Shown here: piece after piece, positions 8,564-9,708 of the stretch | Layout of the letters: each line of letters starts with the position of its first letter | Position numbering within the stretch: position 1 is the stretch's first letter | The notes under the pieces: model-generated | Told to the model about the DNA's origin: nothing | The model's database searches: none | Seen by the model: only the letters and a program-made list of their open reading frames with translations | Program-made: the position numbers and the translations under genes | Virus record (IMG/VR): IMGVR_UViG_3300046453_000020 | Coordinates: 1 to 28,621 of that record | Reading direction: 5' to 3' (one strand) | Origin: a virus | Length of the DNA: 28,621 nt

Positions 8564-8679
8564 TTAACCCTCCTTTGGCATAAATATTTATTTATTGAAT
8601 TGGGCCGGTATCTGTTTGAGTGCAATAAGGTATAGTTCGATCATCTTTTTTGAATCCATGATTAACCCTCCTTTGGCAT
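8564..8679 (-). repeat. 18-bp direct repeat carrying a duplicated Shine-Dalgarno leader
   Basis: The minus-strand sequence ATGCCAAAGGAGGGTTAA occurs at 8564-8581 and again at 8662-8679. Each copy ends just before a start codon: ATG 8562 of the 481-aa protein and ATG 8659 of a 23-codon gene. The identity covers the whole ribosome binding site, so the short gene may have arisen with its leader by local duplication. Confidence 0.8.
8588..8659 (-). CDS. Micro-gene, 23-aa peptide
   Basis: From ATG 8659 a frame encodes 'MDSKKMIELYLIALKQIPAQ' and then 'FNK' before TAA. AGGAGGG lies six bases before the start in a leader identical over 18 bases to that of the next gene. The peptide is a plausible amphipathic helix (Ile/Leu on one face, Lys/Glu on the other). 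It could be a real small virion or membrane-active peptide, or a translated leader that couples ribosomes to the 481-aa gene, whose start lies 25 bases beyond the stop. No family is known to me. Confidence 0.45.
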   Translation of the reverse strand: MDSKKMIELYLIALKQIPAQFNK

Positions 8680-8681
8680 GC

Positions 8682-8702
8682 AAAAAGGACCCCGGAGGGT
8701 CC
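8682..8702 (-). terminator. Rho-independent terminator
   Basis: The minus-strand RNA folds GGACCC (8697-8702) with GGGTCC (8687-8692) around a TCCG loop, followed by five U residues (plus-strand A run 8682-8686). It would stop transcripts coming from the 86-aa gene after they cross the DUF3892 gene in antisense. It thus separates the accessory island from the ejection genes. Confidence 0.75.
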
Positions 8703-8774
8703 CTGTTAGTTTTGGTCTATCCAATTTATTCCTTCCCTAGTAGAATGGTACGTTGGGGAGGAGGTGAAATACAT

Positions 8775-9041
8775 ATGGCACATCAAGTTATTGCAGTACG
8801 TGTTGTTGATCCCGGAACAGACGAACAACACATTACGCACTATAAGTTTGAAGATGGTCAGGTTTTCGATAAGGAACAAATGCTAGCTTCGTTGGAATTT
8901 AAGCTTAAGATGTTCTATACCCTGGAATCTGGAGTGAAAATTGAACTTATCCAGGCGCGCTCTGCATCAGGTAATTATTACGTCAAGACCGATGCTGATG
9001 GCTTTATACCGAACAATCTTTTAAGCTTACCTAGATTCTAA
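8775..9041 (+). CDS. DUF3892 domain protein, 88 aa
   Basis: ATG 8775 is preceded by AGGAGGTG with an eight-base spacer; an in-frame upstream extension exists but lacks such a site. The start 'MAHQVIAVRVVDPGTDEQHI' and the pattern 'THYKFEDGQVFDKEQM' through to 'NNLLSLPRF' match the DUF3892 family, small proteins of unknown function common in Firmicutes chromosomes and prophages. It is the only complete plus-strand gene in the window and its stop overlaps the convergent 86-aa gene by four bases. Opposite strand, good ribosome binding site and separation from the late operon mark it as a moron-type accessory gene. Confidence 0.82.
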   Translation: MAHQVIAVRVVDPGTDEQHITHYKFEDGQVFDKEQMLASLEFKLKMFYTLESGVKIELIQARSASGNYYVKTDADGFIPNNLLSLPRF

Positions 9042-9298
9042 TCAATCCAATTGGGCGCTGGATAGTATCGCTTTTCGATGGTCACATGATCAACGTTAAG
9101 CATATCGTCCACGCCTTCTTCCATATTTGGGTTATAGAACCAGAGTTTTTCCAAAGCTTCCTCATAGGTGATGTGCACACAATTGTTAACAGGTTCTGCT
9201 GTTCCATCCTTCATATGGTATACACGCACAAAACCATGTTTCATTACGGACTTAGACATCGATTCTCCAGCTTTTTTCATTACATCTACACCTAACAT
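9038..9298 (-). CDS. Hypothetical 86-aa protein downstream of a solitary CRISPR-like repeat; candidate anti-CRISPR
   Basis: ATG 9298 has GAGGAGGGG about five bases upstream. The protein has a basic start ('MLGVDVMKKAGESMSKSVMK') and an acidic middle ('YEEALEKLWFYNPNMEEGVD'), ending 'TIEKRYYPAPNWID'. It has no membrane segment and no family I recognise. The context is what is notable: an extended -10 promoter at 9387-9395, then the type I-C-like repeat at 9335-9366 in the 5' leader, then this gene 36 bases on. Transcription continues antisense over DUF3892 to the terminator at 8682-8702. Because anti-CRISPR proteins are small, orphan and often grouped with solitary repeats, it is a candidate Acr, purely from position. 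Confidence 0.6.
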   Translation of the reverse strand: MLGVDVMKKAGESMSKSVMKHGFVRVYHMKDGTAEPVNNCVHITYEEALEKLWFYNPNMEEGVDDMLNVDHVTIEKRYYPAPNWID

Positions 9299-9334
9299 TA
9301 TAACCCCTCCTCATAATAAAAGGCATCCCCTCAG

Positions 9335-9366
9335 GTTTCAATCCACACTCCCTGTGCGGGAGTGAC
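9335..9366 (-). CRISPR. Solitary type I-C-like CRISPR repeat (SRU1)
   Basis: Read on the minus strand, the 32-base element starts GTCACTCCC, has a five-base loop GCACA, then GGGAGTG, and ends in the 11-base handle TGGATTGAAAC. The stem CACTCCC/GGGAGTG is seven perfect pairs. Length, stem position and the ATTGAAAC end are those of type I-C repeats, where Cas5d cuts at the base of the stem and leaves an 11-base handle. No second copy lies at spacer distance, so it is not an array. It lies about 14 bases after a predicted transcription start and 36 bases before the start codon of the 86-aa gene. Confidence 0.75.
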
Positions 9367-9386
9367 CACCGATATTCGTTACCTAT

Positions 9387-9395
9387 ATCATACCA
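9387..9395 (-). promoter_or_regulatory. Extended -10 promoter for SRU1 and the 86-aa gene
   Basis: The minus strand reads TGGTATGAT, a TGn extended -10 with hexamer TATGAT (9387-9392). No good -35 is seen 16-18 bases upstream, which extended -10 promoters can tolerate. The predicted start near 9380 places the CRISPR-like repeat at the very 5' end of the message. A minus-strand terminator upstream (9474-9497) would insulate it. Confidence 0.5.
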
Positions 9396-9469
9396 CCCGT
9401 AGGCAATACTTTTTGATTATTTTTGTATCACATTGCTGTATAAAATGCGATATGCTAAGATACAATTAT

Positions 9470-9497
9470 AAAAGGAGCCGTGCTGTAACACGACTCC
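9470..9497 (-). terminator. Rho-independent terminator after SRU2 transcript
   Basis: The stem is 9474-9482 with 9489-9497. On the minus-strand RNA, GGAGUCGUG pairs with CACGGCUCC (one G-U) around a six-base loop and is followed by UUUUAUAAUU. It would end a transcript begun at the 9670-9678 promoter and any readthrough from the membrane protein gene. Confidence 0.65.
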
Positions 9498-9544
9498 AGT
9501 GTACAACCCGCATGAAGAGCGGTAGGCTTGACAAGGGTGATCAG

Positions 9545-9587
9545 AATAGACCGCTAACCTTGACCAGAGGGCGGTCTATTTCTTTTT
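9545..9587 (+). terminator. Plus-strand Rho-independent terminator
   Basis: AATAGACCGC (9545-9554) pairs perfectly with GCGGTCTATT (9571-9580), and the T-rich run TTTCTTTTT follows (9579-9587). It would stop plus-strand transcription coming from the DUF3892 side before the second repeat. On the minus strand the same hairpin would be an internal structure of the candidate small RNA. Confidence 0.65.
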
Positions 9588-9625
9588 GTGGAAAGATTAG
9601 CCGACCACCCTCATGCCATTGTACT

Positions 9626-9669: not shown

Positions 9670-9678
9670 ATTATAGCA
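9670..9678 (-). promoter_or_regulatory. Perfect extended -10 promoter for SRU2
   Basis: The minus strand reads TGCTATAAT, a full-consensus extended -10 (hexamer 9670-9675). No clear -35 is visible. The predicted start near 9662 leaves only about five bases before the repeat, so the repeat is the first structured element of the RNA. Confidence 0.6.
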
Positions 9679-9708
9679 GACCGTGCCTTTAGTGGGTACG
9701 GTCTTTTT
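9678..9708 (+). terminator. Plus-strand Rho-independent terminator
   Basis: AGACCGTGCC (9678-9687) pairs with GGTACGGTCT (9695-9704) with one G-U and a seven-base loop; TTTT follows. It is the second plus-strand terminator within 160 bases, so the repeat SRU2 is bracketed by barriers to plus-strand (antisense) transcription. Confidence 0.7.

What the first reader, a model, noticed from the sequence alone, without database searches (positions are those of the whole stretch)
9299..9395. Solitary type I-C-like CRISPR repeat in the 5' leader of an 86-aa gene
The 32-base element has a seven-pair hairpin and the type I-C handle (ATTGAAAC end), starts about 14 bases after an extended -10 promoter, and ends 36 bases before an ATG, close to a type I-C spacer length. 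If host Cas5d binds or cuts it, the message would be processed within its leader and the ribosome binding site released on a crRNA-like 5' handle. The phage could thus sense or titrate Cas5d while expressing a possible anti-CRISPR protein. I know of RNA anti-CRISPRs made from solitary phage repeats, but the coupling of such a repeat to a coding gene would be a distinctive arrangement.
Basis: partly seen in the sequence, partly recalled or inferred. Interest (0 to 1): 0.9.

Follow-up and report, generated by a model that had tools for sequence, protein, structure and literature searches.

The report
Phage CRISPR-repeat decoys, one in toxin scaffold
A phage that probably infects Paenibacillus-type bacteria carries two lone copies of its hosts' CRISPR repeat, each behind its own promoter: one leads into a small protein gene, the other replaces the toxin inside a former toxin-antitoxin RNA, and both look like RNA decoys against the host's CRISPR defence.

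Summary
The repeat is real (minus strand, 9366-9335; 0 expected by chance) but not solitary: a second, different 32-nt repeat (R2, 9657-9626) lies 291 nt upstream. Each follows an extended -10 promoter. R1 matches type I-C array repeats exactly outside the loop, including a Paenibacillus array beside cas8c-cas4-cas1. Cas5d occurs in 113/300 Paenibacillaceae genomes; Cas6 was absent from all 16 tested. R1 lies 36 nt before the ATG of an 86-aa gene of unknown function, whose only homologue found has no repeat in its leader. Across viral contigs, 11 of 44 intergenic solitary I-C repeats sit 8-45 nt before a codirectional start codon (null 10.6%, P about 0.005), so leader placement is recurrent. 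The surprise is R2. It sits in a BsrG/Hol_Tox type I toxin-antitoxin locus common in Paenibacillaceae (204/300 genomes). Promoter, leader, 3' UTR, terminator and antisense-antitoxin promoter are kept; 88 nt carrying the toxin's ribosome site and ORF are gone, and the repeat sits near the start of transcription. R2 also carries a G at the Cas5d cleavage position, unseen in 129 host repeats. Best reading: two candidate RNA anti-CRISPRs (Racr), one on an mRNA and one on a gutted toxin RNA. No activity was tested.

The parts
9335..9366 (-). R1: 32-nt type I-C repeat (GTCACTCCC GCACA GGGAGTG TGGATTGAAAC), 7-bp stem, 11-nt handle
   Evidence: 0 expected by chance; stem and handle identical to host array repeats, loop differs
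9387..9395 (-). Extended -10 TGGTATGAT upstream of R1
   Evidence: sequence; not listed by the scan; inferred
9304..9312 (-). Ribosome-binding site GAGGAGGGG of the 86-aa gene
   Evidence: sequence
9038..9298 (-). 86-aa ORF downstream of R1; unknown function; 43% identical to a protein in a prophage-like region of one Paenibacillaceae genome
9626..9657 (-). R2: second 32-nt I-C-type repeat (GTCGCTCCT AATTT AGGAGTG GGGATTGAAAT), with G instead of T at position 22, the Cas5d cleavage position
9670..9678 (-). Extended -10 TGCTATAAT of the R2 transcript, homologous to the promoter of host toxin loci
9678..9708 (.). Terminator-like stem-loop upstream of the R2 promoter, shared with host toxin loci
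9595..9625 (-). Toxin-mRNA leader AGTACAATGGCATGAGGGTGGTCGGCTAATC, 29/31 identical to host loci, now directly after R2
9475..9623 (-). Body of a BsrG-type toxin mRNA lacking the toxin ribosome site and ORF (88 nt present in host loci are absent)
   Evidence: Rfam RF01412 E=1.8e-6, 33.8 bits, below the 55-bit gathering score; host loci score 61-89 bits
9470..9497 (-). Intrinsic terminator of the R2 transcript
9433..9461 (+). Promoter of the antisense antitoxin RNA (TTGCTG-17-TAAGAT), conserved in host loci
9545..9587 (+). 3' terminator stem-loop of the antisense antitoxin RNA
   Evidence: by analogy with SR4/RatA (PMC6562991)

Best explanation
The locus makes two repeat-mimic RNAs that act as candidate RNA anti-CRISPRs (Racr) against hosts that use Cas5d. 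[quoted passage not shown] R2 is carried at the 5' end of a strongly structured non-coding RNA: a former BsrG-type toxin mRNA from which the toxin ribosome site and ORF have been lost. Host Cas5d would bind the hairpins and, at least for R1, cleave after position 21. One Cas5d would stay on the hairpin, and the 11-nt handle on the downstream product would recruit Cas5d and Cas7 onto an RNA that is no usable guide. This would drain subunits from real crRNAs. Shown: repeats, promoter-like sites, terminator, host repeats and cas genes, toxin-locus ancestry, loss of the toxin ORF. Inferred: transcription, Cas5d binding and cleavage, inhibition of immunity.
For: Two different I-C repeats, 0 expected by chance, both directly after extended -10 elements and on the strand that gives correctly oriented repeat RNA. 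R1 is identical outside the loop to host array repeats, including the 41-copy array of Paenibacillus sp. MMS18-CY102 beside cas8c, cas4 and cas1 (L119). Cas5d in 113/300 Paenibacillaceae. No Cas6 in 16 genomes that carry such repeats, so Cas5d is the likely processing enzyme there. R2 sits near the transcription start of a toxin unit whose ORF is gone while promoter, leader, 3' UTR and terminator stay; the RNA folds far better than shuffles (z -6.5). RacrIC1, also a lone I-C repeat, inhibits type I-C immunity and shares a transcript with acrIC5 (PMC10651486).
Against: No exact match to either repeat in 84,980 species genomes; the loops differ from every host repeat seen, so no particular host is fixed. 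No RNA or phenotype data. R1 has no clear -35. R2 differs at position 22, so it may not be cut normally. No close relative of the phage was found in the phage collection, and neither the 86-aa protein nor the R2-toxin fusion was found in other viral contigs, so conservation of the two repeats could not be tested.
Confidence: 0.68

Rival explanations
1. R1 is mainly a Cas5d-responsive leader: binding, cleavage or Cas7 assembly on the 36 nt after the handle changes translation of the 86-aa gene, so the phage senses the host CRISPR system.
For: The 36 nt between handle and ATG is a spacer-like length and holds the ribosome site. 11 of 44 intergenic solitary I-C repeats in viral contigs lie 8-45 nt before a codirectional start codon, against 10.6% expected (P about 0.005), five of them at 22-30 nt.
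Against: The ribosome site pairs outside the repeat. Downstream genes in the survey are unrelated, for example ssDNA-binding protein, SbcC-like, head decoration, tail chaperone, which fits hitch-hiking on phage mRNAs better than specific control. The homologous 86-aa-type gene lacks a repeat.
Confidence: 0.12
2. R2 is a CreA-like guide: the 31 nt after R2 match the leader of host toxin loci, so the RNA steers Cascade to those loci and represses or cuts them.
For: 29/31 identity of the post-R2 sequence to host toxin leaders, loci found in 204/300 Paenibacillaceae genomes. CreTA precedent (PMC9458426).
Against: The match comes from common descent of the locus. Bases before the match in host loci read TAG, GCG or ACC, not the TTC known for type I-C (own knowledge). 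There is no second repeat to end the guide.
Confidence: 0.04
3. The selected product is the antisense antitoxin RNA on the plus strand, which protects the infected cell from host BsrG-type toxins; the repeat is a passenger.
For: Antitoxin promoter and terminator region conserved while the toxin ORF is lost; the 3' UTR complementary to host toxin mRNAs is up to about 86% identical.
Against: Does not explain insertion of an intact I-C repeat near the transcription start, nor the second repeat R1. Not exclusive of the main reading.
Confidence: 0.08
4. The repeats are relics of CRISPR-array fragments or chance insertions without function.
For: No expression data; loops unlike any host repeat seen; the R2 fusion is unique in the data searched.
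Against: Two different intact repeats 291 nt apart, both in sense orientation directly after promoter-like sites; stem pairing kept despite sequence differences.
Confidence: 0.08

Closest known systems
RNA anti-CRISPRs (Racr) from viral solitary repeat units, especially RacrIC1 (PMC10651486)
   Same: Lone, cas-free I-C repeats in a virus, directly after a promoter-like site, matching the subtype of likely hosts; association with a coding transcript
   Different: RacrIC1 lies 11 nt downstream of acrIC5 in one transcript; R1 lies upstream, in the 5' leader. Two unlike repeats in one locus. R2 is built on a toxin mRNA body and carries a changed cleavage position. Activity here is untested.
BsrG/SR4-type type I toxin-antitoxin loci (Rfam RF01412, Pfam PF16935 Hol_Tox)
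   Same: R2 transcript keeps promoter, leader, structured 3' UTR and terminator; antisense antitoxin promoter kept
   Different: Toxin ribosome site and ORF (88 nt) lost; a CRISPR repeat inserted near the transcription start
CreTA CRISPR-regulated toxin-antitoxin modules (PMC8501985, PMC9458426)
   Same: An ectopic repeat joined to a toxin locus
   Different: CreA lies in the host cas locus and guides repression of creT; here the repeat is in a phage, no toxin remains, and host copies lack a type I-C PAM
Virus mini-CRISPR arrays (PMC6858448)
   Same: Virus-borne repeats of host type
   Different: No second repeat after either downstream sequence, so no spacer unit

Membership tests
Solitary repeat unit (SRU) | Full-length CRISPR repeat in a virus, in an intergenic region, no repeat within 100 bp, no cas genes | tested here: met
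   R1 and R2 are 32 nt and 291 nt apart start to start; both lie between coding genes; no cas gene among the proteins checked by family search
Solitary repeat unit (SRU) | At least 90% identity over at least 90% of a known repeat (SRUFinder rule) | tested here: not met
   Nearest repeats held differ at 4 of 32 positions, 87.5% identity. R1 differs only in the loop, R2 in loop plus position 22 and one more. The published repeat database was not on hand, so a nearer repeat may exist there.
RNA anti-CRISPR (Racr) | Promoter upstream and expression as RNA | tested here: inconclusive
   Extended -10 elements present; no RNA data; consensus scan did not list them
RNA anti-CRISPR (Racr) | Hairpin and repeat sequence matching host repeat | tested here: met
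RNA anti-CRISPR (Racr) | Inhibits CRISPR-Cas immunity through Cas-protein binding | not testable with these tools
   needs experiment
Type I-C repeat | Same repeat class adjacent to a Cas5d/Cas8c operon | tested here: met
   Array beside cas8c-cas4-cas1 in L119; Cas5d within the locus in L027, L037, L045, L075, L076, L115, L116, L131. In two Paenibacillus genomes the same class adjoins Cmr (III-B) genes.
BsrG/Hol_Tox type I toxin-antitoxin | Homologous toxin mRNA structure | tested here: met
   RF01412 E=1.8e-6 over the whole model with a deletion, though 33.8 bits is below the gathering score; 85-86% DNA identity to host loci
BsrG/Hol_Tox type I toxin-antitoxin | Toxin peptide encoded | tested here: not met
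   No PF16935 match in the window; 88 nt with ribosome site and ORF absent
CreTA | Guide match next to a PAM at a toxin promoter in a cas locus | tested here: not met
   phage locus without cas; preceding bases TAG, GCG or ACC

The most novel reading that the evidence does not exclude
A phage turned a host-type type I toxin-antitoxin locus into a compact anti-defence RNA cassette: the toxin ORF was lost, a CRISPR repeat mimic (possibly cleavage-resistant through G22) was placed at the 5' end of the stable toxin RNA, and the antisense antitoxin was kept to silence host toxins, while a second repeat lets the leader of a nearby gene drain or sense Cas5d, which in Cas6-less hosts may serve both type I-C and type III-B arrays.
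Probability: 0.22. Interest if true: 0.82.

Novelty: new variant of a known kind. Interest (0 to 1): 0.62.

Why it matters
It shows how an RNA anti-CRISPR can arise: a ready-made, strongly structured toxin transcript loses its ORF and gains a repeat. It gives a matched pair (R1 normal, R2 with G22) to test what Cas5d needs. It also suggests that solitary I-C repeats often travel in 5' leaders of ordinary phage genes, which makes Cas-dependent control or dosage of phage mRNAs directly testable.

Tried and rejected
Exact or near-exact host for the repeats: none in genome contigs. Phage relatives by DNA or by the 86-aa protein: none. Other repeat-toxin fusions: the search of 400 Paenibacillaceae genomes gave one hit, a spacer inside a normal array (L177); four viral hits were an unrelated stretch without the repeat hairpin. 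Fold of the 86-aa protein: mean pLDDT 40, not usable, so no fold search was made. PADLOC, Pfam and PHROGs gave nothing for it. CreA-like targeting rejected for lack of PAM. Mini-array rejected for lack of a second repeat. A suspicion that this repeat class is type III-B rather than I-C in Paenibacillaceae, raised by Cmr genes next to arrays of P. terrae and Paenibacillus sp. GSMTC-2017, was only partly borne out: another Paenibacillus array of the same class adjoins cas8c-cas4-cas1, and no Cas6 was found in these genomes. The MAFFT alignment does not place the insertion and deletion well; they were read from the local alignments and exact strings.

Full report
The observation. The window contains the reported element on the minus strand at 9366-9335: GTCACTCCCGCACAGGGAGTGTGGATTGAAAC, a 32-nt sequence with a 7-bp stem (-12.7 kcal/mol) and the ATTGAAAC end of type I-C repeats. 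A pattern for this repeat class with up to three mismatches is expected 0.00 times in shuffles of the window and occurs twice. Each repeat follows an extended -10: TGGTATGAT at 9395-9387 for R1 and TGCTATAAT at 9678-9670 for R2. R1 ends 36 nt before the ATG of an 86-aa gene (9298-9038) with a ribosome site at 9312-9304.

The repeat class and the likely host. Neither repeat has an exact match among 84,980 bacterial and archaeal species genomes, but the class is common. Against 129 distinct host repeats, R1 is identical outside the loop to several, including the 41-copy array of Paenibacillus sp. MMS18-CY102 next to cas8c, cas4 and cas1. R2 differs from its nearest relatives in P. terrae and P. 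turicensis by two positions outside the loop and four in all. In other bacteria the same class sits beside Cas5d genes. In P. terrae and Paenibacillus sp. GSMTC-2017 it sits beside Cmr (type III-B) genes, while the I-C operons of those genomes carry a related repeat with another stem. None of 16 genomes that carry this class has a Cas6 gene by TIGR01877, whereas seven control genomes do, and 113 of 300 Paenibacillaceae have Cas5d. It follows, as inference, that Cas5d is the enzyme that a decoy would meet, and that in some hosts one decoy could affect both I-C and III-B guide production.

What R2 is. BLAST of the stretch after R2 found a Paenibacillus sequence that encodes a Hol_Tox peptide (PF16935). 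The same locus type is present in 204 of 300 Paenibacillaceae genomes, with up to 86% identity. Those loci read: terminator-like stem-loop, TATAAT, leader AGTACAATGGCATAAGGGCGGTCGGCTAATC, ribosome site and toxin ORF, then a structured 3' UTR and terminator. The phage keeps the stem-loop, the TATAAT, the leader (29 of 31 bases), the 3' UTR, the terminator and the promoter of the antisense antitoxin. It lacks the 88 nt that hold the toxin ribosome site and ORF, and it has R2 between the promoter and the leader. Rfam independently recognises the stretch as BsrG, a type I toxin mRNA, over the whole model with a gap (E = 1.8e-6, below the gathering score); intact host loci score 61 to 89 bits. The phage has no Hol_Tox match. 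The R2 transcript folds far better than its shuffles (-80.6 against -53.2 kcal/mol, z -6.5). R2 also has G at position 22, the base after the Cas5d cut (Cas5d leaves an 11-nt and a 21-nt part, PMC3890593). No host repeat in the set has G there: 124 T, 3 A, 2 C. G22 can pair with U2 and prolong the stem over the cut. A search for other repeat-toxin fusions in 400 Paenibacillaceae genomes and in viral contigs found none.

What R1 and its gene are. The 86-aa protein has no family match, no relative in the phage or viral collections and a single relative in two searches of Paenibacillaceae genomes (300 of the family and 76 of one genus, partly overlapping), 43% identical over 65 residues. That relative lies in a prophage-like stretch with a holin (PF09682), between a Hol_Tox locus and a convergent DUF3892 gene, the same neighbours as in the phage, but its leader has no repeat. 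The pair of gene and repeat is therefore not obligatory, and nothing marks the protein as an anti-CRISPR. The structure prediction was too poor to use. In the predicted leader fold the ribosome site pairs with bases downstream of the repeat, so cleavage of the repeat would not by itself free it.

Is leader placement unusual? Among viral contigs, 62 solitary repeats of the I-C type were collected, 44 of them intergenic by a simple gene caller. Eleven have a codirectional start codon with a ribosome site 8 to 45 nt downstream, against 10.6% of random intergenic positions of the same orientation (P about 0.005), and two in the mirror direction. The genes concerned are varied. It does show that R1 is one case of a recurrent arrangement.

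Mechanism. Published work shows that lone viral repeats act as RNA anti-CRISPRs, that a type I-C example (RacrIC1) protects phages, and that it shares a transcript with acrIC5, lying 11 nt downstream of it (PMC10651486). In type I-C, Cas5d cuts at the base of the hairpin, one Cas5d stays on the hairpin and another is thought to hold the 5' handle (PMC3890593). I infer that R1 and R2 bind Cas5d and divert it, with Cas7, onto RNAs that are not guides; R2 may do so without being cut. The R1 leader would at the same time place Cas proteins close to a ribosome site, so that some effect on the 86-aa gene in CRISPR-bearing hosts is possible but not shown.

Novelty and weight. As a class this is known (Racr candidates). 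New, as far as the papers searched show, are the construction of a repeat mimic on a toxin RNA that has lost its ORF, two unlike repeats in one locus, and the changed cleavage position. Everything rests on sequence; no transcript or activity has been measured, and no second copy of this phage was available to test conservation.

Noticed in passing
window 25274-25351 (-): ARAGORN calls a tRNA with a four-base anticodon (gtgg) and no assigned amino acid; Rfam scores the same place as tRNA with 43 bits.
   Followed up: no
L004 5365-5396 and L016 1144-1175 (both on IMGVR 3300032156_001598): One viral contig has two identical I-C repeats: one 29 nt before an SbcC-like gene, the other in frame within a 68-codon HNH-like ORF just after its ATG.
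   Followed up: partly
L008 6902-6933 and L019 3375-3406: Two related viral contigs share a promoter-like stretch and a lone I-C repeat but differ directly after it; L008 continues into a terminator-like hairpin.
   Followed up: no
L014, L018, L022: Three viral contigs share a repeat placed between a GAGGAG ribosome-site-like motif and an ATG four bases after the repeat.
   Followed up: no
window 8595-9041 (+) and 9038-9298 (-): Convergent DUF3892 gene and 86-aa gene, a pair also found next to a Hol_Tox locus and a holin in a Paenibacillaceae prophage-like region (L174).
   Followed up: partly
L309 and L307 (P. terrae, Paenibacillus sp. GSMTC-2017): Type III-B (Cmr) operons flanked by arrays with I-C-type repeats in genomes without Cas6, suggesting that Cas5d serves the III-B arrays.
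   Followed up: partly
window 1-28621: The phage has a P22-like portal and a terminase only about 37% identical to the nearest phage records, and no close relative in the phage collection.
   Followed up: no
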